Assembly (NCBI RefSeq): GCF_001907195.1
Contig: NZ_LVWA01000010.1
Span: 124,001 to 188,000 of the forward strand
Reading direction: 5' to 3'
From: Pontibacter flavimaris
Lineage (GTDB): Bacteria > Bacteroidota > Bacteroidia > Cytophagales > Hymenobacteraceae
Length of the DNA stretch: 64,000 bases
Each line of letters starts with the position of its first letter. The stretch's first letter is position 1. A model generated the notes under the pieces. That model saw nothing but the letters and a program-made list of their open reading frames with translations, made no database searches and was not told the origin of the DNA. Made by a program: the position numbers and the translations under genes. Of this stretch, positions 1 to 42,338 are shown one piece after another.

Positions 1-6
1 ACATAT

Positions 7-40
7 AGATTGCCCGCCGGTTTGGCCGTGCGGGCAATCT
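7..40 (+). terminator. Hairpin at the left edge, probable terminator of an upstream gene
   Basis: An 11-bp perfect stem (7-17 with 30-40) encloses a 12-base loop. The downstream T content is weak, so termination is inferred. It lies before the preferred start of the DUF368 gene, which argues against starting that gene at 10. Confidence 0.45.
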
Positions 41-84
41 GTGTCTTAGAGGAAGCTACACCAGGTATAGAAGTACCAGTTCTT

Positions 85-1038
85 ATGAGAAGAAGATCGC
101 TGAAAGAGTATTTACTGCTGTTCTCCAAGGGTATGAGCATGGGCGCCGCCGATGTGGTGCCTGGCGTGTCAGGAGGCACCATTGCCTTCATCACCGGCAT
201 CTACGAGGAACTGCTGGACTCCATTCGCTCTGTGAACGGGCAGGCCGTAAAGCTGCTGCTGCGTTTCGACCTGAAGGGGGTCTGGAAGCACATCAACGGG
301 AACTTCCTGGTGGTGCTGCTGGCGGGAATCGGCCTGTCTATCGTTTCCCTCTCGCGGTTGATCTTATACTTGCTGGAGTTTCACGCGGAGATGCTGTGGG
401 CCTTCTTCTTTGGGCTGATCGTGGCATCTGCCGTAGTGGTGGCCAAGAAGATCACCCGCTGGACCCCGGGCGTTATCTTGGCGGGATTGCTAGGGGCCGC
501 CATCGCCTTTTATATAACGGTGGCTACCCCCGCGCAGACTCCCGACGACTACTGGTTCATCTTTCTCTCCGGTGCCATTGCCATCTGTGCCATGATCCTG
601 CCGGGCATCTCCGGGAGCTTTATACTGGTGCTGCTGGCCAAGTATGAATTCATTATGCTGGCGCTTAAGGATCTGAAGCTAAGCATTATCCTCACGTTCG
701 GGGTTGGGTGCTTAACCGGTATCCTCGCCTTCTCGCATGTGCTTAACTGGATGCTCAAGAAATACCACAACGTTACGGTGGCGCTGCTCACGGGCTTCAT
801 GATTGGCTCTCTGAACAAAGTATGGCCCTGGAAACAAACGCTTGAGACCTACACCGACCGCCATGGCGAGGTGAAGCCGCTGGTGCAGGAGAACGTGCTG
901 CCGGGCAGTTACGAGGCCCTCACCGGCCATGACCCATACTTGTTCTATGGCACTTTGCTGGCCATCTTCGGCTTCCTGGTGGTATACTTGCTGGACCGCT
1001 ACTCCGACAACACCGCCACTCAGCAGGTGCGGGTATAA
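85..1038 (+). CDS. popT: DUF368 membrane protein, undecaprenyl-phosphate translocase (PopT-like)
   Basis: A 317-residue polytopic inner-membrane protein. I chose the ATG at 85 because the protein then begins MRRRSLKEYL and runs into the DUF368 signature GMSMGAADVVPGVSGGT near residues 16-32; the longer reading from 10 passes through a hairpin. A second related segment, ICAMILPGISGSFIL, lies near residue 172, giving the internal pseudo-repeat typical of the family. DUF368 proteins (PopT) are known to recycle undecaprenyl phosphate across the inner membrane for cell-wall and surface-glycan synthesis. I see hydrophobic helices throughout. The specific function is by family; substrate and direction are not visible in the sequence. 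aroE follows 18 bases later, so the two may be co-transcribed. Confidence 0.85.
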   Translation: MRRRSLKEYLLLFSKGMSMGAADVVPGVSGGTIAFITGIYEELLDSIRSVNGQAVKLLLRFDLKGVWKHINGNFLVVLLAGIGLSIVSLSRLILYLLEFHAEMLWAFFFGLIVASAVVVAKKITRWTPGVILAGLLGAAIAFYITVATPAQTPDDYWFIFLSGAIAICAMILPGISGSFILVLLAKYEFIMLALKDLKLSIILTFGVGCLTGILAFSHVLNWMLKKYHNVTVALLTGFMIGSLNKVWPWKQTLETYTDRHGEVKPLVQENVLPGSYEALTGHDPYLFYGTLLAIFGFLVVYLLDRYSDNTATQQVRV

Positions 1039-1056
1039 ATCACACCTATAAACGCT

Positions 1057-1791
1057 ATGCGCAAATTCGGGCTCATCGGTAAAAAGCTTGGCCACTCCTT
1101 CTCTAAAAAATTCTTTACAGAGAAGTATGAGCGCGAAGGCATCACCGACGCCGTTTACGGGCTCTACGAGCTGCCTGGGGTGGAGGAGCTCCCGGAACTG
1201 CTGCGGCAGGAGCCGGAGCTGGCGGGCCTGAACGTGACCGTGCCCTACAAGGAGCAGGTAATCCCCTTGCTGGATGAGCTGGACGAGGCGGCTGCCGCCA
1301 TCGGAGCCGTGAACACGATCAAGGTAAGCGACGGGCGCACCAAGGGGTATAATACAGACTATATCGGCTTCAGGAGCTCGCTGGAGGAGTTTTACCCGGA
1401 GCAGGAGCGGGGTCAGGCGCTGGTGCTGGGCACAGGCGGAGCAGCCAAGGCCGTATGGGCCGCGCTGGACGCGCTGCGCATCCCGTACCTGCGCGTTTCC
1501 AGGACAGAGGCGGAGGGGCAGCTGAGCTACGCGCAGCTAACGGCAGAGCTACTGGCTAAGTATAACCTCATCATCAACACCACGCCGCTAGGTATGTACC
1601 CCCATGTGCAGGAGCTGCCGCCGCTGCCGTACGAGCACATAACCGGCGGGCACTATTGCTACGATTTGGTGTACAATCCAATCCAAACGCTTTTTCTGCA
1701 GCGTTGCGCCGCACAGGGGGCCAAGACACTAAACGGCTTGCCCATGCTGCACTTACAGGCCGAAGCCGCCTGGGATATCTGGAATGCTTAA
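1057..1791 (+). CDS. aroE: Shikimate dehydrogenase
   Basis: A 244-residue cytosolic enzyme that reduces 3-dehydroshikimate to shikimate with NADPH, the fourth step of chorismate and aromatic amino-acid synthesis. The N-terminal substrate domain carries the GLIGKKLGHSFSKKF motif (serines that bind shikimate) and NVTVPYK, with the catalytic lysine near residue 64. An ALVLGTGGAAKAV loop near residues 122-134 is the nucleotide-binding motif, and NTTPLGM and GLPMLHLQ follow. The length is slightly short (E. coli AroE is about 272) but usual for Bacteroidota. It lies 18 bases after the DUF368 gene. Confidence 0.95.
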   Translation: MRKFGLIGKKLGHSFSKKFFTEKYEREGITDAVYGLYELPGVEELPELLRQEPELAGLNVTVPYKEQVIPLLDELDEAAAAIGAVNTIKVSDGRTKGYNTDYIGFRSSLEEFYPEQERGQALVLGTGGAAKAVWAALDALRIPYLRVSRTEAEGQLSYAQLTAELLAKYNLIINTTPLGMYPHVQELPPLPYEHITGGHYCYDLVYNPIQTLFLQRCAAQGAKTLNGLPMLHLQAEAAWDIWNA

Positions 1792-1894
1792 TATTTGATA
1801 TTGCAATCGACGGAGGTATAAAAAAGGTCGGAACAGTGCAACTTTACCCGGTGTTATATGCGTTTAAGTACTACGAGCACTTAAACCCTACTGC

Positions 1895-2281
1895 ATGACG
1901 CAACTATACACCCTAAAACAAAAAGCACATTCGTTCCACACTGATATCTACGCCCTGTACCTGGCCTACCGCGACAGCCGCGTGAGGTGGTATGTACGGG
2001 TGCTGCTGGCGGTTTCCATCGCCTACGCCGTTAGCCCGATTGACCTGCTGCCCGACCTGGTTCCGGTTTTCGGGTACCTGGATGATGTGGTGATCGTGGC
2101 GCTGGGCTTGTCGGTTTCGTACAGGCTGCTGCCCAGGGCGGTGCTGCAGGAGGCAAGGCTGCAGGCGTATGAGGAAATGGGACAGTCCGTTTTGGCCATC
2201 AAGGCCATTAGCTATGCCTGGGTATTGCTGCTGACATTGTTCGGCATACTTTTTTACAAGTTCCTGCATCTGCCCTACTAA
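1895..2281 (+). CDS. YkvA/DUF1232 family small membrane protein
   Basis: A 128-residue protein. The central segment RVRWYVRVLLAVSIAYAVSPIDLLPDLVPVFGYLDDV, seen at about residues 29-65, is the DUF1232 signature (SPIDLLPDxxPxxGxxDD). The C-terminal 20 residues form a second hydrophobic helix. DUF1232 proteins have no established reaction. It is about 100 bases after aroE on the same strand and is followed by a strong terminator, so it may be the last gene of the transcript. Confidence 0.8.
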   Translation: MTQLYTLKQKAHSFHTDIYALYLAYRDSRVRWYVRVLLAVSIAYAVSPIDLLPDLVPVFGYLDDVVIVALGLSVSYRLLPRAVLQEARLQAYEEMGQSVLAIKAISYAWVLLLTLFGILFYKFLHLPY

Positions 2282-2350
2282 GGTATATAAGATCTTTTGA
2301 GCGAGGTTTAAGATGATTTACAACTACTGAAAAGCTTGCTGCGAAAGAAG

Positions 2351-2374
2351 AAAGCCTCCTGCCCGGGAGGCTTT
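2351..2374 (+). terminator. Rho-independent terminator after the YkvA-like gene
   Basis: A 9-bp perfect stem (AAAGCCTCC with GGAGGCTTT) and a 6-base loop are followed by ACTTTTTT. It ends the aroE-side transcript. The rest of the 427-base gap (2282-2708) holds no convincing gene; it carries several ATACTT/AAGTAT words (for example near 2392, 2414, 2448 and 2485) and presumably the sigma-factor promoter, which I could not place. Confidence 0.85.
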
Positions 2375-2708
2375 ACTTTTTTAGAGGGTTCATACTTTGT
2401 GTGAGTCGTGAGGCCCTCATACTTTCTGCTTCCGGCAACTGTCGTTTATACTTCTCTTCGTATACCTGCGGATATTCCCCTCCCAAAGTATAAATCTATC
2501 TCTGCATTAGCTGGTACTTAAATCAGTAAACTTTAAAATAATCATAGCAGGGGCAGCTGTTGCGGCACTGTTATTTTCCTATCTTTAACCCACAGAAGCG
2601 GGTCTTTCCCAGAGGCTTGCCCCATCCCTGAAAATAATTTTCACCTGCTTGCAACCTTACGCGCCTGGCAGGAATCATAGTATAAAACAAACGTAAAGCA
2701 GGCTGCAT

Positions 2709-3287
2709 TTGAAGCTTTTTACCAAACCAAAGTCAGACGAGGAGAGGCTCATAGAAGGGTGCATCGCGGGCAAGCGCGACATGCAGCGCCTGCTCTATGA
2801 CCTGTACTCTAAAAAGATGATGGTAGTCTGCCTGCGTTACGCCCCCACAACCTTCGAAGCCGAGGATATCATGCAGGATGCCTTCATCAAGGTGTTCAAC
2901 CATATCCAAAACTTCAAAAAGGATTGCCCGCTGGAGTTCTGGATCCGCCGCATTATGGTGAACACCGCCCTGAAGCACCTGCGCAGCAAGCAACTGCTCA
3001 CCGTGTCGCACGAGGCGGAGGAGGTGGCCAACATCAGTTCCGGGGATATGAACCTGAGCGGCTATACCATGGACGAGCTCCTGGGCATGATCCAGAGCCT
3101 GGCGCCCCGCTACCGGATGGTGTTCAACCTCTACGCCATAGAGGGCTACAACCACAAGGAGATCGGCGAGATGCTGGGCATATCGGAGGGGACCTCAAAA
3201 TCGCAATATTCACGCGCCAGGGCCATACTGCAAAGTATGCTGCTGCGCCAGGAAGAAAAACTAAAGGAACATGTCATCAGCAACTAA
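2709..3287 (+). CDS. ECF-type RNA polymerase sigma factor
   Basis: A 192-residue sigma factor. Region 2 (about residues 25-90) includes EDIMQDAFIKVFNHIQNF and the WIRRIMVNTAL segment. Region 4 (about 125-185) includes RMVFNLYAIEGYNHKEIGEMLGISEGTSKSQYSRAR, a helix-turn-helix that reads the -35 element. The start is the TTG at 2709, giving MKLFTKPKSDEERL; no upstream in-frame ATG fits. Its 3' end overlaps by 17 bases a gene for a membrane-anchored protein with an N-terminal anti-sigma-like segment, so the sigma factor is probably held at the membrane by that partner. It resembles the Bacteroidota sigma factors paired with envelope-spanning regulators. Target genes are unknown. Confidence 0.88.
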   Translation: MKLFTKPKSDEERLIEGCIAGKRDMQRLLYDLYSKKMMVVCLRYAPTTFEAEDIMQDAFIKVFNHIQNFKKDCPLEFWIRRIMVNTALKHLRSKQLLTVSHEAEEVANISSGDMNLSGYTMDELLGMIQSLAPRYRMVFNLYAIEGYNHKEIGEMLGISEGTSKSQYSRARAILQSMLLRQEEKLKEHVISN

Positions 3288-4953
3288 CCATAATCGCGGA
3301 GGGTTGGAGGAAGAGTTCCGCCACCGCATGCAGGACGCTGAGGCTTCTCCGTCCGCAGACCTTTGGGCCCGCATAGACCACAGCCTGACCGTGCAGGAAA
3401 ACGGGCAGTATAAGCGGGGCATGCTGTTTTACCGGCAGCTGGCGGCCGCCTGTATCACGCTGCTGCTGGTAGCGGGCGGTTTTGCCGCTTACTATTTCGG
3501 TGGGCCTGCCGTGGCGCCCGTGGCCCGGGTAGGGCAGCCAAGCGAAACCATCGCCGCCGTACAACCCGCCGCGGAAGAAGCCGCTGTGTCCGAGGAGGCC
3601 ATTGCCGCCGCCATGCAGCAGGCAGTGCAGGAGCCAGCACCACTAGAACCCGGAGCATCCCGCCAAAGTATGGCTAAGGTCGCAAAAGCGGGCAAAGAGC
3701 CGGTGGCTGCAAGTATAAAACCAGCGGCCGCTACCAACCCTACTGCCGTTGCCGCCACTACAGCCGCCACCCCTGACCCCAGTGCCTGGCATAGCGTGCC
3801 GGCCGGCAAGTATCATGCTGCTGCACAAAGCTACACCGGCGGCCGTGAAAGTATAAATGCCCGGAGCATGTTCTCCAGGCTGGAAAGTATGAGCCGGGCG
3901 TTTACAGAACGCCCCACCGGTACTTCCGGTTTTGCTGCTGCCGGCGCGCCTGCCCTTGCCGGGGCGTCACAGGAGGTTCCGGAGGATTTCAGGACATTGA
4001 ACGAAATTGTGATGAGCCGCATGAAGCAGCTGAAGGCAGAGCAGGAGGCGGTGCAGCAGAAGTATAAAGCAGAGAAAAAAGCACTGGCTGCCGCTACCAC
4101 TGCCGACACGGAACAAGAGAATACCTCCGCCGGAAGGTGGTCTTTGGGTATGGCCTACGCGCCAAGCTACTTCGAGCAAAACATCGGCATCCCATCCCAG
4201 ATGATGGGGCCCATGAACAGCTTCGCTTCGTTCGCCCCCGCCACCGCCATGCAGCAGTCGGCCCGCATGATGGACGAAGCCCGCGAGGAGCATGAGGAGG
4301 AGGTAGAGCCGGGCTTCTCATTCGGGATAGAGGCCAAGGCGGGCTTCAGGCTGGGCAGAAAATGGAAATTACTGAGTGGCCTGGGCTTTACGCAGAACAC
4401 CGCCCGCTCCAAATCCAGCTACGTGATACAGCAATTCTGGCGCAAGCCAGGCACAGGGAAAACGGAATCGCCGGGAGCCTCCACGATCTTCGTGCCGTCG
4501 CTCAGCAGCAACTTCGCCTCCGACTCGCTCAGCGTAGCCAAAACCAATGAGTTTAACGTGCTGTACCGCTACCGCCACCTCACCGTACCGGTGGGCGTGC
4601 AGTACGAGGGCAACCTGGGCAAAGACTGGTTCTGGTTTGCCGGTGGTGGCGTGGCAGCCAACATCCTGCTCCAGACGTCCATACTTGCCTCCTCGGCCGA
4701 GGTGCGCGACACGGACTACGAGCTCAGCGACGACAACTCCCCGTTCCGTAAGCTGCAGTGGTCTGGCAACGTGACTGCCGGTGTGGGCAAGCGCCTTTCC
4801 AACAACCTGTCCATCGCCATTGGGCCGGAGTACAGGGGCTACTTCGATACCATGCTTTCCTCGCCGGAGAAGGCGCAGGCGCCGCAGGGCAAGCCCTACA
4901 CCATGGGCATCAACATGGCCCTGAACTACGACCTGGGGCCGGGCCGCAGATAG
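3271..4953 (+). CDS. Putative dual-membrane-spanning anti-sigma factor with outer-membrane beta-barrel
   Basis: A 560-residue protein. Residues 1-53 are polar and contain an EEEFRHRMQDAEASPSADLW segment like the short cytosolic anti-sigma region of Bacteroidota sigma partners. A hydrophobic helix follows at about 54-77. Residues 78 to about 285 are Ala/Pro/Gln-rich and look disordered. From about 288 to the end come alternating aromatic/polar strands (WSLGMAYAPSYFEQN, GFSFGIEAKAGFRLG, LTVPVGVQYEGNLG, LSIAIGPEYRGYFD) typical of an outer-membrane barrel of the OMP_b-brl type. The layout fits the Dma class known from Bacteroides, which link the two membranes and control an ECF sigma factor. The 17-base overlap with the sigma gene supports coupling. 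That it binds this sigma factor is inferred. Confidence 0.75.
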   Translation: MSSATNHNRGGLEEEFRHRMQDAEASPSADLWARIDHSLTVQENGQYKRGMLFYRQLAAACITLLLVAGGFAAYYFGGPAVAPVARVGQPSETIAAVQPAAEEAAVSEEAIAAAMQQAVQEPAPLEPGASRQSMAKVAKAGKEPVAASIKPAAATNPTAVAATTAATPDPSAWHSVPAGKYHAAAQSYTGGRESINARSMFSRLESMSRAFTERPTGTSGFAAAGAPALAGASQEVPEDFRTLNEIVMSRMKQLKAEQEAVQQKYKAEKKALAAATTADTEQENTSAGRWSLGMAYAPSYFEQNIGIPSQMMGPMNSFASFAPATAMQQSARMMDEAREEHEEEVEPGFSFGIEAKAGFRLGRKWKLLSGLGFTQNTARSKSSYVIQQFWRKPGTGKTESPGASTIFVPSLSSNFASDSLSVAKTNEFNVLYRYRHLTVPVGVQYEGNLGKDWFWFAGGGVAANILLQTSILASSAEVRDTDYELSDDNSPFRKLQWSGNVTAGVGKRLSNNLSIAIGPEYRGYFDTMLSSPEKAQAPQGKPYTMGINMALNYDLGPGRR

Positions 4954-5033
4954 ACGATTATTTTTCGGGGAGCTTGCAACGCGCAGGTATACGTTGGGGT
5001 CATAAAGGTGTAGAAGACAAAAGCCTGCTGCCT

Positions 5034-5138
5034 ATGAAACCACTGCTGAACCTGATGGAGCTTTGCGCCTTCGCGGCGCGCGAAAACCTGTACGGGTGGT
5101 ACCTGCTGCTGGCGCTGCTGCTCTTCGCCATACTTTAA
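5034..5138 (+). CDS. Possible 34-residue membrane peptide
   Basis: A short reading frame starting MKPLLNLMELC and ending in one hydrophobic helix (WYLLLALLLFAIL) immediately before the stop. It lies 80 bases after the barrel gene on the same strand. A single helix after a short amphipathic start is plausible for a small membrane protein, but there is no family match I recognise and it could be chance. Confidence 0.25.
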   Translation: MKPLLNLMELCAFAARENLYGWYLLLALLLFAIL

Positions 5139-5226
5139 TTCGGTGCTATCTTCTAAGCTATGAACAGAGCCTGCCGCTGCCAGGCAGTCCAGTATACGTT
5201 TGTCCATTCCCATTCCTAAGCTAACT

Positions 5227-5607
5227 ATGAAAACCCTGGGCTGCATCACCATACTCTACCTCTGCCTTGCCCTGCTGGCTTCGGGCTGTGCCAAAACGGC
5301 ACCCGTGCCAGCCTGTACCACGGCAGAGGTAGTAGCCCAGGACTGCCAACCCGGCTGGTTTATACTTAAGCTGGAGGATGACTCGGAGGAGATAGCCGGC
5401 AAGAGCGGTGCTTATGTGGGGCAGTTGCACGGTGGCTTCGTTACCACCCATAACCTGCCTGAACAGTACCGGGAGGCAGGCGCAAAGGTAAGCCTTCGGA
5501 TGGTCCTGGACGGCTCAAACGGCCCCCGTTGCACCGCCAACTACATGATGTATCCCGCCGTGAAGGTGGTGGAGGTATGCACGGAGCCGGAGCGCACACA
5601 TCGATAA
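5227..5607 (+). CDS. Small hypothetical lipoprotein
   Basis: A 126-residue protein from the ATG at 5227, preferred over an upstream in-frame ATG at 5200 because it gives a clean lipoprotein signal: MKTLG, a hydrophobic core and the lipobox LLASGC, with the cysteine at residue 20. Four further cysteines (in PACTT, QDCQP, PRCTA, EVCTE) suggest disulfides in the mature protein. It has a beta-rich pattern but no family that I recognise. It is followed by a terminator at 5660, and nothing in the context reveals its role. Confidence 0.7.
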   Translation: MKTLGCITILYLCLALLASGCAKTAPVPACTTAEVVAQDCQPGWFILKLEDDSEEIAGKSGAYVGQLHGGFVTTHNLPEQYREAGAKVSLRMVLDGSNGPRCTANYMMYPAVKVVEVCTEPERTHR

Positions 5608-5659
5608 AAGTGAATTGTTAAGTGTAATGTGATTGATTAACTAAGGTGAGCGAATACAG

Positions 5660-5680: not shown

Positions 5681-5794
5681 TTGTTTGCCTCACGTACTGG
5701 TGCAGGCTATACTCCATGCCCTGCACGGTGCAATAATCTGAAGTGTTTGCAGTTTACAGAAGGTAATATCTTTCTGTTGAAGAAAATATAGTGT

Positions 5795-10705: not shown

Positions 10706-10850
10706 GCAAGTTAGAGAGTTTGGGAGTTAGAGAGTTGGAGAGACGCGATTGCGTCTTGAGTTAGAAAGTTAGAAAGTTAAAAAGTTAGAAGGTTAGAAAG
10801 TATAAAAAGTAAGTATTAAGTATAAAATATAAACTGAAGTATAAAAAGTA
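10706..10850. repeat. Low-complexity GTTAGAAA-like intergenic repeat
   Basis: Degenerate direct repeats of GTTAGAGAGTT/GTTAGAAA pass into repeated AAGTATAAAA words (copies near 10799, 10811, 10819 and 10838). There is no coding potential. It is probably replication slippage or an extragenic repeat. Confidence 0.6.
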
Positions 10851-10852
10851 GA

Positions 10853-10884
10853 AAAGCACCTGCGGCCTGGGCTGTAGGTGCTTT
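10853..10884 (+). terminator. uvrB terminator
   Basis: A 9-bp stem AAAGCACCT/AGGTGCTTT closed by a 14-base loop, followed by CCGTTT. The T-run is modest and the stem starts about 150 bases after the uvrB stop. Confidence 0.65.
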
Positions 10885-11151: not shown

Positions 11152-11174
11152 CAGCCTTATACTTATACTTATAC

Positions 11175-11732
11175 TTATTGCGGCAGCAGCACTTTGTCGA
11201 TTACGTGGATCACGCCGTTTGACGTTGGGATGGATGCCACGATGTTGGCACCGTTCACAGTCACCTTACCGTCCTTCACGCCCATGGTCACGCGGCCGCC
11301 GTTTACCTGGCCCAGGCTCTGGCCATCTTCAAACCTGTCTGCGTTCAGCACGCCCACATACACGTGGTACTGCAGGATGTTGCGGAGATCGCTGCGTTTT
11401 TCGGGCTTCAGCAGGCCGTCTACCGTACCGGCAGGCAGTTGCTCAAAGGCCTCATCGGTGGGCGCGAACACGGTGAATGGCCCGGCGTTGGTGAGCACAT
11501 CTACCAGCCCGGCTGTTTTAACGGCTGTTACCAGCGTGGTGTGGTCGGGAGAGGAGGCGGCCACCTGCACCACGTTCTTCTGCGACTCATCGTCCTGCAC
11601 GCCGGACTGGCCTGCGGCGGCTGTAGCTTCCTGCTGCACCTCCTGGGCAGTAGTCTGTTCTTCCGTAGAATTGCAAGCGGCCAGCGCAGCACCTGTTGCT
11701 ATCATAAAGGCCATTGGTAAAATCCTTTTCAT
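11175..11732 (-). CDS. Fasciclin (FAS1) domain lipoprotein
   Basis: A 185-residue protein from the ATG at 11732, preferred to the ATG 45 bases upstream because it gives a proper signal (MKRILPMAFMIATG, lipobox ALAAC, cysteine at residue 19) and has GAAAGGAT just ahead of it. A Gln/Glu/Ala-rich linker follows, then a FAS1 domain from about residue 57: DHTTLVTAVKTAGLVDVL, GPFTVFAPTDEAFEQLP and the C-terminal H2 motif NGVIHVIDKVLLPQ. FAS1 domains mediate adhesion or protein contact at the cell surface. Three tandem ATACTT words (11159-11176) overlap the stop codon. Confidence 0.92.
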   Translation of the reverse strand: MKRILPMAFMIATGAALAACNSTEEQTTAQEVQQEATAAAGQSGVQDDESQKNVVQVAASSPDHTTLVTAVKTAGLVDVLTNAGPFTVFAPTDEAFEQLPAGTVDGLLKPEKRSDLRNILQYHVYVGVLNADRFEDGQSLGQVNGGRVTMGVKDGKVTVNGANIVASIPTSNGVIHVIDKVLLPQ

Positions 11733-17747: not shown

Positions 17748-19667
17748 TTATGGGAGGATAAAGCGCAGACTAAACGTATAACCACGTGGTGGCATGGCGC
17801 GGTAGGCCATGGTTTGGTAAGCGGCATTGGTCAGGTTATCGGAGCGGAGCGTGAGCAGCAGCGTGTTTGGCCCCAATTGCAGCCTCCGGCTCAGGGCCAG
17901 GTTCAAAAGTATAAAATCATCCAGGTGGCTGGTTTCGGAGTTGGACGTATAGCGCAGGCCGGTGTAGTTCAGGTTGCCCAGCAGGCTCCAGCTTTTATAC
18001 TTTGCCTCCGTAGCCAGTATGGCTTTGTGGCGCGGCACGTACATGAGCTGCCTGCCCTTATCGCTTCCGCTGCCCTCGTATACTGCTGCCTGCACCGACG
18101 ATGTATAGGTATAGCCTGCCGTGGAGCTGAGCTTGACCTCGCCAAGCGTAGCGGTCGCCGTTGTGCTCAGTTCGATGCCCTTGCTCTCCACCTTCTGCAG
18201 GTTGGTCGGTCGCCAGAGGCCGGTGTAGTTCGGGGTCCACTGAATCCAGTCGTCGATGAGCATGTAGTAGCCGGTCGCCTCCGTTTCCAGTAGGAAGGCG
18301 TTGCCTTGCACGAGCACGTGGCGCAGGCCCAGTTCGTAGTTCCAGCCCTGCTCCGGCTTGAGGTCGGGGTTGCCGGCACCTGCCCAGAAGCGGTCGTTGA
18401 GGGTGGGCACGCGGTAGCTGCCGCTGGCATTGCCTTTCAGCGATACCTGGTGCTGGTTGCTGTTCAAAAACTTCCAGTTAAAGCCCAGTGCCGGGGTGAG
18501 CGGCGGATTGTAGTTTTCGACCAGCGCCTGGCGCAAATTCAGGGTGAGCTGCAGGGGCTGCACCGGGTCGTAGCGGAAAAGGGCGAACAGAGAGGCGCGG
18601 CTTTCCTCTTGCTCACGGGCGTAGCCATCATTCCTTGCCACAAAGTGCTGTAGGTTGACGCCGCCGCGCAGGCTCCAGCGCGTGCCGTAAGTATAGGTCT
18701 GCTCCGCCTGCAACTGATAAGTATCCACATCCGCCTCAGAGTCATTGCTATTATCGGTGTAGTGCAGGAAGTCGTTAAAGTAAGCCAGCTTCACGTCTGT
18801 TTGGCCCAGTTGGCTTTGGTGCTGCAGCCCTGCCATCAGGCGCAGGCTTTCGTCCAGCTGCCGGGCATTGGTATTCACAGCGCCCATGGCTGGCTGCAGT
18901 TCCCGGTCCGAGAAGGTATACCAGCCGTGCAGGCTCAGCTCGGTAGCGGGGGAGATGTGCCAGTTCAAATCCTGTGTAAGCCCGTGCTGCTGCACCTGTG
19001 CGTGTTCCTGCTGTACTTCGGGCGTGCCAAAGCGGCTCAGGTCTTTATACTTGAAGGTGTTTTCGGCCAGGTGGCCGTAGGCGCTGAGGGCATAGCTGAA
19101 CTTTTTGCTGCCGTAGCCCAGGTTGCCGCTGCCAAAGTAGCGGTCAAAGCTGCCTGTCTCCAGTTTCACGTCGCCGCCAATGCCTTCTGTTTTATACTTG
19201 GGGGAGTTGAGTAAAACAGCCCCGCCTATGGCTCCGCTGCCGTAGCTTGCCGCTGCCGCGCCATGCTGCACCGCCACCTCCCCAATACCGCTCAAGGGCA
19301 GGACAGAGAAATCGGACTGGCCCAGGGTAGGAGAGGCGATGTGGAGCCCGTTCCAGAGCACAGCGGTTTGAGAGGCGTTGGTGCCCCGGAAAGCTACCGA
19401 GGAGCTGCCGCTTACGCCATAGCTTTTAAAGTAAATAGGCGTGCGGGCCTGCAATGCCTCGGCCAGAGAGCCGGAGCTGTAGGTGCTCAGAAAGGCGCTA
19501 TCCAGCTGCACCACGCGGCTGCCGGTGGCGTATACTTCGGCGGGTTTGCCGAACACCTCCACGGTGCGCAACTGGTGCTGCGTGGTGTCCTGCTGCGCCA
19601 TCGCCGCGACAGGCACGCTGCCCAGGCAGGCACAGAGCCATACTTTTAAAAAGGAGAATTTAGCCAA
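17748..19667 (-). CDS. btuB: BtuB-like TonB-dependent cobalamin receptor
   Basis: A 639-residue outer-membrane receptor. A signal peptide ends at about residue 25 (VAAMAQ). The plug domain follows (about 35-150): LRTVEVFGKPAE, SLAEALQARTPIYFKSYG, SSVAFRGTNASQTAVLWNG and SYGSGAIGGAVLLNS. The remainder is a 22-strand type barrel with alternating aromatic strands (FSYALSAYGHLAEN, NYELGLRHVL, GLRYTSNSETSHLDDFILLNL). It imports corrinoids across the outer membrane with energy from TonB-ExbBD. The substrate is assigned from the cobalamin riboswitch about 120 bases upstream and the adjacent BtuG-like gene. Confidence 0.9.
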   Translation of the reverse strand: MAKFSFLKVWLCACLGSVPVAAMAQQDTTQHQLRTVEVFGKPAEVYATGSRVVQLDSAFLSTYSSGSLAEALQARTPIYFKSYGVSGSSSVAFRGTNASQTAVLWNGLHIASPTLGQSDFSVLPLSGIGEVAVQHGAAAASYGSGAIGGAVLLNSPKYKTEGIGGDVKLETGSFDRYFGSGNLGYGSKKFSYALSAYGHLAENTFKYKDLSRFGTPEVQQEHAQVQQHGLTQDLNWHISPATELSLHGWYTFSDRELQPAMGAVNTNARQLDESLRLMAGLQHQSQLGQTDVKLAYFNDFLHYTDNSNDSEADVDTYQLQAEQTYTYGTRWSLRGGVNLQHFVARNDGYAREQEESRASLFALFRYDPVQPLQLTLNLRQALVENYNPPLTPALGFNWKFLNSNQHQVSLKGNASGSYRVPTLNDRFWAGAGNPDLKPEQGWNYELGLRHVLVQGNAFLLETEATGYYMLIDDWIQWTPNYTGLWRPTNLQKVESKGIELSTTATATLGEVKLSSTAGYTYTSSVQAAVYEGSGSDKGRQLMYVPRHKAILATEAKYKSWSLLGNLNYTGLRYTSNSETSHLDDFILLNLALSRRLQLGPNTLLLTLRSDNLTNAAYQTMAYRAMPPRGYTFSLRFILP

Positions 19668-19787
19668 AACAAACGTTGCTTACATCCCGAAGCATGCTAC
19701 AGGGCAAAGGGGCAGGAACAGCAAACGCGCTAAAGTATGGCGGTGGCCGTGCAGCTTTTTTACCCGAAAGCATACGACAAATCTGGT

Positions 19788-19972
19788 GTCGGACTGGCAG
19801 GTCTCCTGGCTCTCTTCAGTTAGCGCGCCTTCCCATGCAGCGTGCGCGGCACAGTGGCTAAGGTGTTGGCTAACCCTTTTTAAGAAGATGACAGTTGCGG
19901 GAACAGCGCAGGACTCACACCTGCTTCCCTTTTAAGGCCATACAACGATAGTTCTACAGCCACCAATCTGGT
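19788..19972 (-). promoter_or_regulatory. Cobalamin riboswitch upstream of btuB
   Basis: Read on the minus strand the region holds the adenosylcobalamin aptamer hallmarks in order: AAAAGGGAAGC and AGGTGTGAGTCCTGC, then GTTCCCGCAACTGT, a GCCACTG segment, TGGGAAGG with GCGC, and the closing B12 box GCCAGGAGACCTGCC at 19796-19810. When cobalamin binds, expression of the downstream receptor and BtuG-like genes should fall. I cannot tell whether the expression platform works by termination or by hiding the start region; the aptamer ends about 120 bases from the btuB start. Confidence 0.95.
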
Positions 19973-19985
19973 GCGAAGTTAATGA

Positions 19986-25660: not shown

Positions 25661-25683
25661 CAAAGTATAAATGCCATACTTTG
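25661..25683. repeat. Inverted pair of the AAGTAT word
   Basis: CAAAGTAT (25661-25668) and ATACTTTG (25676-25683) form an 8-bp inverted repeat with a 7-base loop; two more ATACTT words follow within 30 bases. They sit in the 311-base gap 25420-25730, in which I see no convincing gene on either strand. Confidence 0.6.
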
Positions 25684-25730
25684 GGCACGGCTGTTATACT
25701 TTTATACTTTGTTTTGGCTTGCGGTGTGGG

Positions 25731-37014: not shown

Positions 37015-37583
37015 AGGTAGGGCTGCTCTTTGGCTCCTTTAACCCCATCCACATCGGGCACCTTATACTTGCCAACTTCATGGCCACCAACACCGATCTG
37101 GACACGGTGTGGCTGGTGGTCTCGCCGCAGAATCCGTTCAAGCCCAGCAACACGCTGCAGCACGAGTTCGACCGGCTGCACATGGCACGCCTGGCAATAG
37201 CGGATAACCCGAACCTGGGCGTGTCGAACATCGAGTTCAGCATGCCCAAGCCCAGCTACACCATCGACACGCTTACGTACCTGCAGGAGAAGTACCCCAG
37301 TTATGAGTTTGTGCTGATCATGGGGGAGGACAACCTGCCGCTGTTTCCGAAGTGGAAGAACTACGAGCGCATCCTGGAGTACCATAAAGTATACGTGTAC
37401 CCGCGCACCGGCTCCATCACTACCGATTTGCCGGACATGCCCGGCATCACGTTCGTGAAAGCACCCATACTGGACATTTCGGCCACGTTTATCCGGCAGT
37501 GCATCCGCGAGGAGAAAAGTATAAAATACCTGCTGCCCGACGAGGTAGCCGAGTATATAAAGGTGCATCGGCTATACCTGTAG
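37011..37583 (+). CDS. nadD: Nicotinate-mononucleotide adenylyltransferase
   Basis: A 190-residue enzyme that joins nicotinic acid mononucleotide to AMP, the central step of NAD synthesis. It has GSFNPIHIGHL with the nucleotidyltransferase HxGH motif at residues 14-17, and the C-terminal ISATFIRQCIREEKSIKYLLPDEVAEYI containing the ISxTxIR signature. Start overlaps the gmk stop by 4 bases, indicating translational coupling. Convergent with frr, separated by a bidirectional terminator. Confidence 0.95.
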   Translation: MKVGLLFGSFNPIHIGHLILANFMATNTDLDTVWLVVSPQNPFKPSNTLQHEFDRLHMARLAIADNPNLGVSNIEFSMPKPSYTIDTLTYLQEKYPSYEFVLIMGEDNLPLFPKWKNYERILEYHKVYVYPRTGSITTDLPDMPGITFVKAPILDISATFIRQCIREEKSIKYLLPDEVAEYIKVHRLYL

Positions 37584-37647
37584 CTCTTCTGCGTATCATG
37601 TAGCACGACGCACGTAGCACGACCAGGTATAAAAGCTTGAGGGAAAA

Positions 37648-37687
37648 ATAGAAAAGCCCTTCGATCTTGATCGAAGGGCTTTTCTAT
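37648..37687. terminator. Bidirectional terminator between nadD and frr
   Basis: A 19-bp perfect inverted repeat (37648-37666 with 37669-37687) with an AGAAAAGCCC/GGGCTTTTCT base, so U-runs form on both strands. Confidence 0.93.
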
Positions 37688-37723
37688 TATCGTGTGTCTT
37701 GATACGTTCTACGAGATACGAGT

Positions 37724-38287
37724 TTAGATCGTCATGATCTCGGCCTCTTTCTTGGCCAGCAGCTCGTCGATCTTCACGATGTAGTTGTCTGTCAGCTTCT
37801 GCACCTTGCCCTCTGCGTCGCGAACGGCGTCCTCGGCGGTGCCTTCCTTCTGCAGTTTCCTGAGCGTGTCGTTCACATCCTTGCGGATGTTGCGGATGCT
37901 GACCTTGCCGCTCTCCGTTTCGCCCTTCACCTGTTTCACCAGGTCACGGCGGCGCTCCTCGGTCAGGGCCGGGATGCTCAGACGCACCGCGTCGGCCTCC
38001 TGCTGCGGGTTCAGGCCCAGGTCGCTGTTCTTAATGGCTTTGTTGATCTCGCCCAGCATGTTCTTCTCCCAAGGCTTGATGAGCAGGGTGCGCGCATCGG
38101 GTGCAACAATGTTCGCCACCTGAGAGATGGGGGTCGGGTTGCCGTAGTAATCCACGCGCAGGTGCTCGACCATGGCAGGCGAGGCCTTGCCCGCCCTGAT
38201 TTTAGACAGTTCGTTGCCGGTGTGCTGCACCGCCTTCTGCATAGACTCCTCTGCCTCGCTTAGGTAAAACTGAATTTCTTCCGTCAT
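37724..38287 (-). CDS. frr: Ribosome recycling factor
   Basis: A 187-residue protein that, with EF-G, splits the post-termination ribosome. Signatures: LSKIRAGKASPAMVEHLRVDYYGNPTPISQVANI (residues about 28-62), IRAG, and LTEERRRDLVKQVKGETESGKVSIRNIRKDVND (about 111-145). Length matches the family. It lies 49 bases downstream of pyrH on the same strand, the usual pyrH-frr order. Confidence 0.97.
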   Translation of the reverse strand: MTEEIQFYLSEAEESMQKAVQHTGNELSKIRAGKASPAMVEHLRVDYYGNPTPISQVANIVAPDARTLLIKPWEKNMLGEINKAIKNSDLGLNPQQEADAVRLSIPALTEERRRDLVKQVKGETESGKVSIRNIRKDVNDTLRKLQKEGTAEDAVRDAEGKVQKLTDNYIVKIDELLAKKEAEIMTI

Positions 38288-38336
38288 ATCGGTTTACTTA
38301 TTGAGTTCTGAAAAATTTAGGGTCAAAAATAGCAAA

Positions 38337-39113
38337 TTATATTTTGTCCGTCTTGGCACTTGGCTGCAGTTTGTCTACGGTTTCCTTCAGCGTGTCGCCC
38401 AGGTCATCCATACTTACCAGGGTGCCCACTTGCTCGCCCTCCACCAGTCGTTTCAGGTTGCCCGGTGTGTTCATGTCGAATACGATGATCGGCAGGCCGT
38501 TTTCCTTGCAAAGCGTAAAGGCGGTCATGTCCATCACGTTCAGGCCCTTCTCAAACACATCCTTAAAGGAGATGTTCCGGTAGAACACGGCGTCCGGGTC
38601 CTTCTCCGGGTCAGCGGAGTAGATGCCGTCCACGCGGGTGCCTTTCAGTACCACGTCCGCCTCAATCTCGATGGCCCGGAGCGAGGCGGCAGAGTCTGTG
38701 GTGAAGTATGGGTTGCCGGTGCCGGCGCCGAAGATCACCACGCGGCCTTTCTCCAGGTGGCGTACCGCACGGCGGCGGATGTAGGGCTCGCATACCTGCT
38801 GGATGTTGATGCCCGAGAGCAGGCGCGTGTAAACGCCCAGCTTTTCGAGGGCGCTCTGCAGCGCCATGCTGTTGATCACCGTGGCCAGCATGCCCATGTA
38901 GTCTCCCTGCACGCGGTCCAGGCCCACTTGCTCGGCCTGCACCCCCCTGAAGATGTTGCCTCCGCCTATCACCACGGCCACCTCCACACCCAGGGCGGCT
39001 ACTTCTTTAATCTCTTTGGCATACTGCAGCAGTCTGTTGGAGTCGATGCCATACTGCTGCTCGCCCATCAGCGCCTCGCCACTCAGCTTCAGCAAAATTC
39101 GTTTATACTTCAC
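38337..39113 (-). CDS. pyrH: UMP kinase
   Basis: A 258-residue enzyme phosphorylating UMP to UDP. It has [14 protein letters not shown] at the N-terminus, [11 protein letters not shown] (about residues 47-57), [16 protein letters not shown], and [33 protein letters not shown]. The core matches the hexameric bacterial UMP kinase. There is a C-terminal extension of about 15 residues ([14 protein letters not shown]) beyond the usual end. Confidence 0.97.
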
Positions 39114-39156
39114 GGTAAACTATCTGTATAGGTTATGAATTCTTTTTAACACAACA

Positions 39157-39180
39157 AAGCGGCTACCGTGGCAGCCGCTT
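39157..39180 (-). terminator. Terminator of the biotin carrier gene
   Basis: An 8-bp stem AAGCGGCT/AGCCGCTT just past the stop of the minus-strand carrier gene; the following minus-strand sequence TGTTGTGTTAAAAAG is only moderately U-rich. Confidence 0.6.
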
Positions 39181-39197
39181 ACGCGCGGGTATCTAAG

Positions 39198-39698
39198 TTA
39201 ATGGAAAAGGATCAGCACCTGGTTCTTCTCCACGTTCTGCCTTACCTGCACTTTTACTTCCTTTACCACGCCATCGCCCGGCGACTTGAGGATGTTCTCC
39301 ATCTTCATGGCCTCCAGGATCATGATCGGGTCGCCCTTCTGCACCTCCTGGCCCGGCTGCACCTTCACGTCAAGTATAAGTCCTGGCATGGGCGCTTTTA
39401 CGTCGTTTACCTTGTGGGCGTTGGCGTTGCTCATGCCCAGTTGGTCGAGCAGCAGGTCGAAGCGGTCTTTCACGCTAACGGTTTGTATGGCGCCGTTTAT
39501 CTTAAACGTAAAGGATTTTTCCTGGTAGTTGGCTGAAACCACCTCTGCGGTAAAGGAGCGCGCGCCTTTGATGATGTGAAACGTGTTAGGCCCGATAGGG
39601 GAGATGTCCCAGTCGAAAGGAGTATTGTTGAGAAGTATAGTATCTTTTTGGATATCAACCTGCCATGTTTTGCCGTTACCGGTTTTTACCTGGAGCAT
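39198..39698 (-). CDS. Biotin carboxyl carrier protein (biotin/lipoyl-attachment domain)
   Basis: A 166-residue protein. A beta-rich N-terminal part (1-95) precedes a biotinyl domain with GLILDVKVQPGQEVQKGDPIMILEAMKMENILKSP; the biotinylated lysine of AMKM is residue 132. This is the subunit type of Bacteroidota acyl-CoA carboxylases (acetyl- or propionyl-CoA), which carries CO2 between the carboxylase and carboxyltransferase sites. The partner subunits are not in this window, so the exact enzyme is unknown. Confidence 0.9.
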   Translation of the reverse strand: MLQVKTGNGKTWQVDIQKDTILLNNTPFDWDISPIGPNTFHIIKGARSFTAEVVSANYQEKSFTFKINGAIQTVSVKDRFDLLLDQLGMSNANAHKVNDVKAPMPGLILDVKVQPGQEVQKGDPIMILEAMKMENILKSPGDGVVKEVKVQVRQNVEKNQVLILFH

Positions 39699-39785
39699 CT
39701 TCTTTTCGTGTGGTTTCGACCTTAAAGTTAGTGTTTTCTCAGAGTAATTTTAGAACTTCACCTCAAATTTTAAAACTTTCAGCGC

Positions 39786-42338
39786 ATGAATCATAGGTTT
39801 CTAAGTATAGTTGGGCTGGTTGCGGCCATGACTTTTACAGGTGGTTGTGGCGTGTTCAAACCGCGGGGCACTGGCGAGGCAGGTGCAGAGAAGGTAATTG
39901 TAGGTAAAACAGCACCTGCTTTAGCTGATGCTTTACCAGCTTGGGCGCCTAAGAAGCATGCCTTCAACCCCTCGCGCACCCGCGAGCACGACCTGCTGCA
40001 CACCACCCTGCGCGTCAGCTTCGACTGGGAGAAGCAGTATCTGCACGGCCTGGCCGAACTCACCCTGAAGCCATACTTCTATCCTCAGCGCCAGCTCACG
40101 CTCGATGCCAAGGGCATGGACATCCATAGTGTGCACCTGATGCAGGGCTTTGACGGGACCGCGCTGGAGTACAAGTATGACGGCCAGAAACTCACCATCG
40201 ACCTGGGCAAGGAATACACCCGCGATGAAAAGTATAAACTGGAGATAGACTACACGGCCAAGCCGAACGAACTGGCCTCTGGCGGCTCCGATGCCATCAC
40301 CGAAGATAAGGGACTATACTTTATCAACCCGCTGGGGGAGGAGCCGAACAAGCCGCAGCAGATCTGGACGCAGGGCGAAACGGAGGCCAGCTCCGCCTGG
40401 TTCCCGACCATCGATGCTCCGAACGAGCGCATGACCCAGGACATCTACATCAACATCGACCCAAAGTATACCACGCTCTCCAACGGCACCTTCGTTTACT
40501 CGCGCCAGAACGCCGACGGCACCAAGACCGACTACTGGAAGCAGGAGAAACCGCACGCGCCCTACCTGGCCATGCTGGCCATAGGCGAGTTTGCCGTGGT
40601 GGAGGATAAGTGGCGCGACCTGGAAGTGAATTACTATGTGGAGCCGGCGTATGAAAGCACCGCCAGAAAGGTGTTTGGCAACACCCCGGAAATGATGGAG
40701 TTCTTCTCGCAGAAGCTGGGTGTGGACTACCCCTGGGCCAAGTACGCGCAGGTGGTGGTGCGCGATTTCGTGTCCGGGGCGATGGAGAACACTTCGGCTT
40801 CTACCTTTATGGAGGACCTGCAGTTGAATGAGCGCGAAGTGCTGGACAAGAGCTGGGACGGCATCATTGCGCATGAGCTGTTCCACCAGTGGTTCGGCGA
40901 CCTGGTTACGACGGAGTCCTGGGCCAACCTGCCGCTGAACGAGGCCTTCGCCAACTACTCGGAGTACCTGTGGGCGGAGCACAAGTATGGCGCGGACGAG
41001 GCCGCTTACCTGCACCTGGAGGAACTGGGGCAGTACCTGGATGAAGCCCAGACGAAGCGTGAGCCGCTCATCCGCTATCACTACAAAGACCGCGAGGACA
41101 TGTTCGACAGCCACTCCTACGCCAAGGGCGGCCGCGTGCTGCACATGCTGCGCAAAATCGTAGGCGACGACGCCTGGTGGGCCTCCCTCAACTTATACTT
41201 AACGCGCAACAAGTATAGCGACGTGGAGGTGGCGGAGCTGCGCATGGCCTTTGAGGATGTGACGGGGCATGACCTGATGTGGTTTTTCGACCAATGGTTC
41301 ATGAAGCCCGGGCACCCCGAGTTGCTCGTAACGCAACGCTACAACAAAGGCCAACTGCAGCTAAACGTGCAGCAGCTGCAGGATACCACCTATTCACCTG
41401 TATACCGCCTGCCCCTGCAGATAGCCATCTGGGCAGAGGGGAAAAAGCAGCTGCACCCGGTTGTGGTCGAGAAGGCGAACCAAACCTTCACGTTTGATGT
41501 AGCCGCGCAGCCGCAGCTGGTGCTGTTCGACGCGGAGCAGCAATTGCTGGGAACGGTGGAGCACGAGAAGACAGAGGAGGAGTTGCTATTCCAGTTCCGC
41601 CATGCCGGGCACCTGGCTCCAAAGCTGGACGCGCTGTCGGAGCTGCAGGAGCAGGTGAGCCGACCGCAGGTGCAAAGCATTTACAAGGAGGCGCTGAAGG
41701 ACGATTACTGGGCAGTGCGCAGCACAGCGTTAAGTATATTGAGCAGGCTAAAAGAAGGGCAGGTGGCATCGCTGGAACCAACGATAAAGCAAATGGCGGT
41801 AAATGACGAGAAGGGTTCCGTGCGCGCCGAGGCCATACTTGCTCTGGCAGGATGGGGCGGAGGTAAGTATCAGGACCTGTTCCGGCAGGCCATGAACGAC
41901 AGCTCCTACCAGGTTGCGGCAGCAGCCATACTTGGCTACGCTAGCACGGGCGCCGCCGATGCAAAGCAGCGGATGGCCCAGTTTGAGGACGAGAGCAACG
42001 AGGAAGTGGTGCTGGCCCTGGCCACCATCTATGCCGTGCAGGCAGGGCCGGAGAAGTATGACTGGTTCCTGCAGAAACTGAAATCTGCCAGTAGCGGGGA
42101 GTTATACTACCTCTTGCAGAGCTTCGGCGCCTACCTGGCCAGCAACAGCGAGACCAACACGCCGGAGGTGATCGCCATACTGGGCGGTATTGCCAAGGAG
42201 CATCGTCTCTACTACGTGCGGGCCGCTGCCTATCAGGCACTTATGGTGATGTCGGAGAACCCGGAGGTAGAGCGGCTGATGCAGGAAATTAAGGCCCAGG
42301 AGAAGGATGAGCGGCTTCTGCAGATGTATGAAATGTAG
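39786..42338 (+). CDS. M1 family aminopeptidase with C-terminal HEAT-like repeats, lipoprotein
   Basis: An 850-residue zinc peptidase. Signal MNHRFLSIVGLVAAMTFTGGC has a lipobox cysteine at 21. The beta-saddle N-terminal domain is followed by the exopeptidase motif GAMEN (near 331), the zinc-binding HELFH at 363-367 and the third ligand E386 in NEAFAN, giving HExxH-x18-E. The C-terminal third (about 600-850) is helical with HEAT-like pairs (VRAEAILALAGWGGGKY, YQVAAAAILGYASTGA). It trims N-terminal residues from peptides, probably outside the cytoplasm. Many AAGTAT/ATACTT words occur inside the gene. Confidence 0.93.
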   Translation: MNHRFLSIVGLVAAMTFTGGCGVFKPRGTGEAGAEKVIVGKTAPALADALPAWAPKKHAFNPSRTREHDLLHTTLRVSFDWEKQYLHGLAELTLKPYFYPQRQLTLDAKGMDIHSVHLMQGFDGTALEYKYDGQKLTIDLGKEYTRDEKYKLEIDYTAKPNELASGGSDAITEDKGLYFINPLGEEPNKPQQIWTQGETEASSAWFPTIDAPNERMTQDIYINIDPKYTTLSNGTFVYSRQNADGTKTDYWKQEKPHAPYLAMLAIGEFAVVEDKWRDLEVNYYVEPAYESTARKVFGNTPEMMEFFSQKLGVDYPWAKYAQVVVRDFVSGAMENTSASTFMEDLQLNEREVLDKSWDGIIAHELFHQWFGDLVTTESWANLPLNEAFANYSEYLWAEHKYGADEAAYLHLEELGQYLDEAQTKREPLIRYHYKDREDMFDSHSYAKGGRVLHMLRKIVGDDAWWASLNLYLTRNKYSDVEVAELRMAFEDVTGHDLMWFFDQWFMKPGHPELLVTQRYNKGQLQLNVQQLQDTTYSPVYRLPLQIAIWAEGKKQLHPVVVEKANQTFTFDVAAQPQLVLFDAEQQLLGTVEHEKTEEELLFQFRHAGHLAPKLDALSELQEQVSRPQVQSIYKEALKDDYWAVRSTALSILSRLKEGQVASLEPTIKQMAVNDEKGSVRAEAILALAGWGGGKYQDLFRQAMNDSSYQVAAAAILGYASTGAADAKQRMAQFEDESNEEVVLALATIYAVQAGPEKYDWFLQKLKSASSGELYYLLQSFGAYLASNSETNTPEVIAILGGIAKEHRLYYVRAAAYQALMVMSENPEVERLMQEIKAQEKDERLLQMYEM

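What the first reader, a model, noticed from the sequence alone, without database searches (positions are those of the whole stretch)
1..42338. A short word, AAGTAT/ATACTT, is strongly over-represented through genes and gaps of the first 42 kb
Seen directly: my approximate hand count gives about 165 copies of AAGTAT or ATACTT in 1-42338. Random sequence with equal base frequencies would give about 21, and the true base composition (GC-rich) should give fewer. Most copies extend to AAGTATA or AAGTATG. They occur in both orientations, in all three coding phases (Lys-Tyr; Ser-Ile or Ser-Met; Glu-Val-Tyr; Ile-Leu on the reverse) and in intergenic DNA. Inside genes they are often spelled with codons uncommon elsewhere, for example AGT-ATA at 3850-3855 and ATA-CTT at 41835-41840. 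That suggests the DNA word itself is maintained, as with HIP1 in cyanobacteria or uptake signals in other bacteria. Possible roles are a methyltransferase or nucleoid-protein site, DNA uptake, or a replication/repair signal; none is shown. I know of no description of this word in Bacteroidota.
Basis: partly seen in the sequence, partly recalled or inferred. Interest (0 to 1): 0.87.

Follow-up and report, generated by a model that had tools for sequence, protein, structure and literature searches.

The report
Genome-wide DNA word with species dialects
Bacteria of the genus Pontibacter carry thousands of copies of one short DNA word, and different species use different spellings of it, which looks like a self-recognition mark for DNA exchange, though that has not been tested.

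Summary
In detail: 165 AAGTAT/ATACTT in 1-42338 (order-2 expectation 19), 187 in the window (shuffles 21.9). It is not local: the genome (4.62 Mb, Pontibacter) has 10,628 AAGTATA against 276 of the reversed word. Codon-preserving shuffles give 85 against 676 coding copies. The drop after 42 kb marks tuf, rpoBC and ribosomal genes.

New: Pontibacter species have dialects. Of 50 genomes, 23 are rich in AAGTATA (3 of these also in AACTATA), 4 in AACTATA alone, 12 in AGGTATA, one in ATATATR, one weakly in GGTATR, and in 9 none was found. New words mostly arise at new places. In the window's lineage words are lost 2.6 times more slowly than control words; in its sister at or near the control rate.

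This resembles DNA uptake sequence dialects of Neisseriaceae. But no full-length PilB-type ATPase was found in 50 genomes, while ComEC is in all 50. Three methyltransferase families do not track the words. Best reading: an uptake-type self-DNA word read by an unknown pilus-free receptor. Uptake is untested and no receptor was identified.

The parts
1..42338 (.). Word-rich stretch: 165 AAGTAT/ATACTT, 153 of them AAGTATR (3.6 per kb)
42339..64000 (.). Word-poor stretch: 22 AAGTAT (17 AAGTATR), 2-4 times expectation only, over tRNA-Tyr/Gly/Thr/Trp, tuf, nusG, L11, L1, L10, L7/L12, rpoB, rpoC, S12, EF-G and L3
20776..21049 (-). Intergenic cluster of 9 copies, several 6 or 11 bp apart
10798..10842 (+). 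Intergenic cluster of 4 copies downstream of uvrB
11159..11176 (-). Three head-to-tail copies at 6-bp spacing
25663..25709 (.). Four copies in both orientations within 47 bp
3849..3854 (+).
41835..41840 (-).
39786..42338 (+). M1 family peptidase gene, used to place the genome in Pontibacter and to find the gene in all 50 genomes of the genus

Best explanation
Shown: AAGTATR is a highly iterated word of Pontibacter chromosomes; it is kept more often than its flanks in the window's lineage, in genes and between them; and the genus has dialects (AAGTATA, AACTATA, AGGTATA, ATATATR). Inferred: the word is a DNA-uptake-type self-recognition mark. Cells that take up DNA prefer fragments carrying their own word, so alleles with the word replace alleles without it during homologous recombination. 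That raises gain and lowers loss of words everywhere without any site having its own job. It would belong to a pilus-free route, for example of the outer-membrane kind proposed for Riemerella, with ComEC as inner-membrane channel. The receptor is not identified.
For: Genome-wide, strand-symmetric excess. Codon shuffle 85 against 676. Sharp core with weak flanks. Dialects differing by one or two bases around TATR, three genomes with two strong dialects. Dialect words mostly at different homologous positions: 0-4 coincident of 18-27 in ten AAC- or AGG-against-AAG comparisons, 1 of 45 for ATA against AAG. Words kept in place within a dialect: 74 shared against 32 expected with G044; 22 shared of 28 and 30 AACTATR at 85% identity. 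Slower loss in the window's lineage, 37 of 384 against control 182 of 730, p 2e-10; sister G019 97 of 444 against 154 of 702, p 1.0. Against their own flanks in G000: coding 21 of 250 against 175 of 572, intergenic 11 of 91 against 46 of 151. One-step gains 20 in G000 and 10 in G019, control 167 and 188. Fewer words in conserved proteins. ComEC in 50 of 50.
Against: No uptake experiment for this genus turned up in the paper searches. No full-length PilB/T2SSE ATPase in 50 genomes, so the pilin type of uptake-word receptor is not available. ComEC is also present in the nine genomes without a word. DUF5689, a domain of a Riemerella transformation protein, does not track the words (17 of 41 word-bearing, 5 of 9 wordless; absent in the window's genome). 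Against composition-matched 7-mers between genes, G000 words are not lost more slowly (exact 15 of 96 against 144 of 1022). Word sharing with G001 is as expected without any holding, 30 against 29.6. Terminal branches of G025 and G011 show only weak slowing, 9.8% against 14.9% and 15.1% against 19.5% with outgroup G000, and none for G011 with outgroup G022. Head-to-tail copies 6-8 bp apart, 74 on one contig with at most 8 within genes, are not predicted by uptake alone. The few coincident dialect sites still exceed the 0.02 expected at random.
Confidence: 0.47

Rival explanations
1. Weak direct selection for binding sites of an abundant chromosome-binding protein, for example a nucleoid organiser or segregation factor, whose specificity drifts between species.
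For: Within-gene spacing mostly close to random; conservation in place with three of five relatives and in the window's lineage; dialects could be a drifting DNA-binding protein.
Against: More than ten thousand sites would each need selection; dialect change mostly abandons old positions instead of converting them; in nine sister species no word was found.
Confidence: 0.2
2. HIP-like: a solitary DNA methyltransferase modifies the word and methyl-directed repair biases mutations toward it; dialects are different methyltransferases.
For: HIP1 in cyanobacteria has alternate words tied to other methyltransferases (PMC4390886, abstract and first part of section 3.4 seen). Loss and gain are both biased in the window's lineage.
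Against: PF01555 has no match in 19 of 50 genomes including the window's own, PF02086 none in 37 of 50 including its own. G010, with 9,120 AAGTATA, has neither, and its only two PF02384 matches are weak, in 290 and 394 aa frames. The word is not a palindrome. Dialects change one or two bases around a constant TATR. C5 and other methyltransferase families were not searched; the window's own genome has 5 PF02384 matches.
Confidence: 0.14
3. Chi-like signal that stops a RecBCD/AddAB-type nuclease and starts recombination, with species-specific recognition.
For: Seven-base asymmetric word; recombination-linked bias fits the gain and loss pattern.
Against: Polarity is weak: 793 against 666 on one 435-kb contig whose 50-kb GC skew is positive throughout; 420 against 400 on the G022 contig. 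Nuclease genes were not examined.
Confidence: 0.1
4. Codon usage, amino-acid composition, base composition or mutation bias produces the excess without any reader.
For: Lys-Tyr spelled AAG-TAT is the phase with the highest shuffled expectation (47 of 85). Enrichment of the word correlates with GC of the stretch, r 0.68 over 79 partly overlapping pieces.
Against: Codon shuffle 85 against 676 and intergenic density 2.5 times coding; reversed word 38 times rarer; species of the same genus use other words; loss is suppressed too, which a mutation bias toward the word does not predict.
Confidence: 0.03

Closest known systems
DNA uptake sequence (DUS) dialects of Neisseriaceae
   Same: Thousands of copies of a short asymmetric word; dialects differing by a few bases around an invariant core; one genome with two dialects; relatives without an obvious one (PMC3630211, abstract and section 'DUS dialects' seen).
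   Different: 7-base instead of 10-base word; denser (3.35 AAGTATR per kb on one contig; the highest quoted there is 5,918 in 2.4 Mb); Bacteroidota; no full-length pilus-type ATPase found; uptake not shown.
HIP1 and alternate HIPs of cyanobacteria
   Same: Genome-wide over-represented word replaced by other words in some genomes (PMC4390886).
   Different: HIPs are GC-rich palindromes tied to methyltransferases; this word is asymmetric and AT-rich, and three methyltransferase families do not track it.
Uptake signal sequences of Pasteurellaceae
   Same: Over-representation explained by uptake bias as molecular drive (PMC1939737, abstract seen).
   Different: Different word, phylum and machinery.
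Pilus-free natural transformation of Riemerella
   Same: Same phylum, needs ComEC, no pilus homologs detected; R. columbina reported to prefer its own DNA (PMC8459023 sections 19 and 21 and passages, PMC7965970 section 16 and passages).
   Different: Their k-mer table lists only A/T-rich words and no clear uptake word; DUF5689 does not track the words here.
Chi sites
   Same: Short asymmetric species-specific words (recalled, no call).
   Different: Weak polarity here.

Membership tests
DNA uptake sequence (DUS/USS) | Short word far above expectation through the whole genome, both strands | tested here: met
   AAGTATA 5461 + 5167 against reversed word 134 + 142
DNA uptake sequence (DUS/USS) | Species dialects with an invariant core | tested here: met
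   AAG/AAC/AGG whole-genome counts; ATA in 300 kb of one genome; TATR common
DNA uptake sequence (DUS/USS) | Type IV pilus or related uptake apparatus (PilB-type ATPase) | tested here: not met
   PF00437: all listed matches in the 50 genomes are partial, the longest 66 of 370 positions, 3 genomes barely over the cut-off
DNA uptake sequence (DUS/USS) | ComEC inner-membrane channel | tested here: met
   50 of 50; in-frame stop in G020 and G040, shorter frame in G038
DNA uptake sequence (DUS/USS) | Word raises DNA uptake or transformation | not testable with these tools
   Needs an uptake assay
HIP1-type word | Palindromic word | tested here: not met
   AAGTATR is asymmetric; only overlapping pairs at 3-bp spacing give the palindrome AAGTATACTT
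HIP1-type word | Cognate solitary methyltransferase in word-bearing genomes | tested here: inconclusive
   PF01555 and PF02086 absent from the window's genome; G010 lacks both and has only two weak PF02384 matches; C5 and others not searched
Chi site | Strong orientation bias along the replication direction | tested here: not met
   793 against 666 (54%) on a 435-kb contig
Chi site | Word halts RecBCD/AddAB-type nuclease | not tested
   No genes searched

The most novel reading that the evidence does not exclude
Pontibacter has a self-DNA recognition system for natural transformation that works without any pilus: an outer-membrane or surface receptor reads a 7-base word, receptor changes make dialects that act as barriers to gene exchange between species, and the genus preserves genomes before, during and after dialect switches.
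Probability: 0.4. Interest if true: 0.92.

Novelty: new variant of a known kind. Interest (0 to 1): 0.86.

Why it matters
Genome-wide words with alternates are known from Neisseriaceae and Pasteurellaceae (uptake) and cyanobacteria (HIP), and how they are made and read is still argued. This is another kind of bacterium, in a phylum where pilus-free transformation exists but the outer-membrane step is unknown, with 41 word-bearing and 9 apparently wordless relatives in one genus. That could make the reader protein findable by gene presence alone, and lets drive against selection be tested on thousands of sites per genome.

Tried and rejected
Type IV pilus route: PF00437 search, 0 of 50 with a full-length match. 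ComEC as the switch: present in 50 of 50, so it does not separate word-bearing from wordless genomes. DUF5689, a domain of a Riemerella transformation protein: 22 of 50 (17 of 41 word-bearing, 5 of 9 wordless). Methyltransferases PF01555, PF02384, PF02086: none tracks the words. Insertion origin: of the window's word sites aligned to five relatives, those with an indel were 10 of 153 (G019), 9 of 149 (G022), 13 of 131 (G044), 15 of 125 (G001) and 10 of 100 (G035), so most changes are substitutions. In-place conversion as the main route of dialect change: rejected, though some sites coincide. My first reading that word-poor genomes had simply lost the word (after) was overturned. A plasmid search with a TonB receptor gave no Pontibacter record among those listed. 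Literature: searches found no report of this word or of an uptake word in this genus; for most papers I saw listings only, and the held library lacks most subscription journals.

Rows dropped or doubled: unaligned or gapped sites are left out; one search counts part of contig C10 twice (79 rows); one fetched stretch held withheld letters and its low count was disregarded. Genes were called by a home-made codon-score script. A first loss estimate (14 single-step losses in G000 and 38 in G019 against 95 and 91 expected from context rates) was set aside because its expectation ignores that the compared sites are conserved ones.
Full report
Observation. The window holds 187 AAGTAT on both strands against 21.9 +- 4.3 in 100 shuffles, largest 32. 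Predicting the 6-mer from its own 5-mers gives 123.7, because the word itself raises the 5-mers. In 402 kb of this genome the core AAGTAT is followed by A (66%) or G (28%), with A preferred before it and A/G after it. Single-base neighbours of AAGTATA are 3.0-fold (AACTATA, 80 against 26.5), about 2-fold (AATTATA, TAGTATA, AGGTATA) or within 0.6 to 1.8-fold of an order-2 model that itself includes the words.

Not codon usage. In 316 home-called genes of 424 kb there are 676 AAGTATR. Shuffling synonymous codons within genes gives 85.4 +- 7.5, maximum 99 of 50 shuffles. All six phases exceed their shuffled means, and density is 2.2 per kb in genes and 5.5 per kb between them. On a 435-kb contig the density is 11.8 per kb between converging genes, 6.1 between tandem and 4.4 between diverging genes. 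Within genes spacing is mostly close to random, with an excess at 0-3 bp (14 against 7.5) and a deficit at 9-14 bp (3 against 12.4). Across 178 genes the density falls as protein conservation rises (Spearman -0.24, p 0.001; 3.39 per kb in the least conserved quarter, 1.63 in the most).

Genome and genus. The genome has 4,623,791 bases in 13 contigs; AAGTATA occurs 5461 + 5167 times, the reversed word 134 + 142. The M1 peptidase 39786-42338 places it in Pontibacter: of 80 named loci returned, 36 are Pontibacter and one Botryobacter ruber at 68-85% protein identity; the other 43, mainly Hymenobacter, have 43-55%. Over all 50 genomes of the genus AAGTATA runs from 770 (G035, fewer than its reversed word, 982) to 11,818 (G025, P. 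mucosus). In 291 genomes drawn from the order, 6 of them of this genus, no genome outside the genus exceeds 2.5-fold over the reversed word (G224, 1361 against 542). Other words were not counted outside the genus.

Dialects. I first read the low counts as losses, since word-rich genomes are scattered over a tree of seven concatenated proteins. Searching word-poor genomes without a preset word showed other words instead. Whole-genome counts confirm two. AACTATA occurs 11,674-13,168 times in G009, G015, G017, G028 and G038 (reversed word 626-833), and 6,094 and 8,118 in G013 and G045. AGGTATA occurs 5,748-9,303 times in 12 genomes of the roseus/lucknowensis clade (reversed 226-357), and 3,132 in G041 (reversed 545). 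G035 has ATATATR, 628 against 33.5 in 300 kb, less sharply than the others: CTATATR, TTATATR and GTATATR are also 7- to 10-fold. G041 shows AGGTATR, GGGTATR and CGGTATR 4.5 to 5.6-fold in 82 kb. G013, G015 and G045 carry AAGTATA and AACTATA together at thousands each; G049 has 10,614 AAGTATA and 3,531 AACTATA. My tally over 50 genomes: 23 with AAGTATA (4,114 or more), 4 with AACTATA alone, 12 with AGGTATA, 1 with ATATATR, 1 weak (G041), 9 with none found (G008, G014, G016, G027, G029, G033, G036, G037, G047). The nine were scanned for other words only in 22-83 kb each, and five of them keep 2.1- to 4.0-fold AAGTATA. AGGTATA is raised two- to sevenfold over its reversed word in most other genomes of the genus too, so part of its excess may be cross-recognition or background.

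Dynamics. In gap-free alignments of about 15-19 kb, AACTATR sites coincide with AAGTATR of relatives in 0-3 of 18-27 cases (seven comparisons), and AGGTATR with AAGTATR in 3-4 of 18-21 (three comparisons); random expectation is 0.02, so some sites are shared or converted, but most are not. Within a dialect coincidence is higher: 22 of 28 and 30 at 85% identity, 26 of 28 and 30 at 92%, 12 of 19 and 25 at 85%, 12 of 26 and 23 at 82%. Of the window's words aligned gap-free to relatives, shared against expected from overall identity: G019 95 of 148 against 72, G022 69 of 144 against 45, G044 74 of 123 against 32, G001 30 of 117 against 30, G035 2 of 91 against 19. On a three-way alignment of 435 kb (G000, G019, G022) words shared by the other two are lost in 37 of 384 cases in G000 and 97 of 444 in G019; control 7-mers of the same composition in 182 of 730 and 154 of 702 (p 2e-10 and 1.0). 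Against their own flanks: G000 coding 21 of 250 against 175 of 572, intergenic 11 of 91 against 46 of 151 (p 0.001); G019 coding 63 of 297 against 178 of 627 (p 0.02), intergenic 23 of 103 against 28 of 140 (p 0.75); G022 coding 143 of 385 against 488 of 1061 (p 0.003), intergenic 55 of 138 against 143 of 292 (p 0.08) (an exchange of A and G at the last base is not counted as loss of a word, which favours words a little). Against composition-matched 7-mers between genes, however, G000 shows no slowing (15 of 96 against 144 of 1022). One-step gains number 20 in G000 and 10 in G019, control 167 and 188. For G025/G011 against G000 the stem or outgroup loss is 54 of 183 against 173 of 276, p 2e-12, but with outgroup G022 only 102 of 188 against 182 of 297. 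Terminal branches show little: with outgroup G000, G025 14 of 143 against 18 of 121 and G011 23 of 152 against 25 of 128; with outgroup G022, G025 7 of 93 against 18 of 133 and G011 13 of 99 against 15 of 130. So the bias is strong in some lineages and weak or absent in others. Low enrichment is seen in a phage-integrase segment beside mnmE (3.9-fold) and a urease operon (2.4-fold), against a median of 26-fold, but enrichment also rises with GC (r 0.68), so this is not clean evidence of recent arrival.

Mechanism. In the window's lineage loss is suppressed and gain raised, which a mutation hotspot does not give; a fixation bias does. Selection on each of ten thousand dispensable sites is hard to accept, and the mostly new positions of a new dialect speak for density rather than site function. 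Uptake-biased recombination gives such a bias, has been argued to make such words (PMC1939737, abstract) and is known to have dialects around a fixed core, a mixed genome and wordless relatives (PMC3630211, abstract and one section). These parallels are why I prefer it; it remains inference.

Machinery. No genome of 50 gave a full-length PilB/T2SSE ATPase; the longest match covers 66 of 370 positions. All 50 have ComEC, with an in-frame stop in G020 and G040 and a shorter frame in G038. Riemerella, of the same phylum, transforms without detected pilus homologs and needs ComEC, DprA, RecA, ComF, a helix-hairpin-helix protein, a DUF1343 protein and two proteins predicted at the surface and in the outer membrane (PMC8459023, sections 19 and 21); R. 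columbina is reported to prefer its own DNA, and the k-mer table there lists only A/T-rich words (PMC7965970, section 16). DUF5689, a domain of one of those proteins, is found in 22 of 50 and does not follow the words. For the HIP-like rival: PF01555 matches in 31 of 50 but not the window's genome, PF02086 in 13 of 50 but not it; PF02384 in 50 of 50, 5 matches in the window's genome, but in G010 (2 matches) and G032 (1 match) only at E of 7e-5 or worse. C5 and other families were not searched. Polarity is 54:46 on a contig with one-sided GC skew, too weak for a typical Chi (the comparison with Chi is recalled).

Limits. Statements about print rest on searches of the held open-access library.

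Noticed in passing
window 19779-19982 (-): Cobalamin riboswitch upstream of a TonB-dependent receptor gene 17748-19667.
   Followed up: no
L066 238-9057 (G000 contig C8): Tape-measure-like (below Pfam's cut-off), phage integrase and AlpA-like genes beside mnmE; the word is only 3.9-fold enriched in the first 10 kb.
   Followed up: partly
L076 3052-7577: Urease genes in a 46% GC stretch with few words (6 against 2.5 expected in 10 kb).
   Followed up: no
window 10741-10860: Degenerate run of AGTTAGAAAGTTAG-like units that grades into word copies downstream of uvrB.
   Followed up: no
G000 contig C10: Words overlap as the palindrome AAGTATACTT (28 neighbours at 3-bp spacing) and stand 7 bp apart (40 cases).
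   Followed up: partly
G020 and G040 ComEC genes: The ComEC match carries an in-frame stop although both genomes have many words.
   Followed up: no
G224 (another genus of the family): AAGTATA 1361 against 542 for the reversed word, a mild excess outside the genus.
   Followed up: partly
22 Pontibacter genomes: DUF5689 matches lie either in frames of 413-450 aa or in frames of 1,099-1,299 aa.
   Followed up: no
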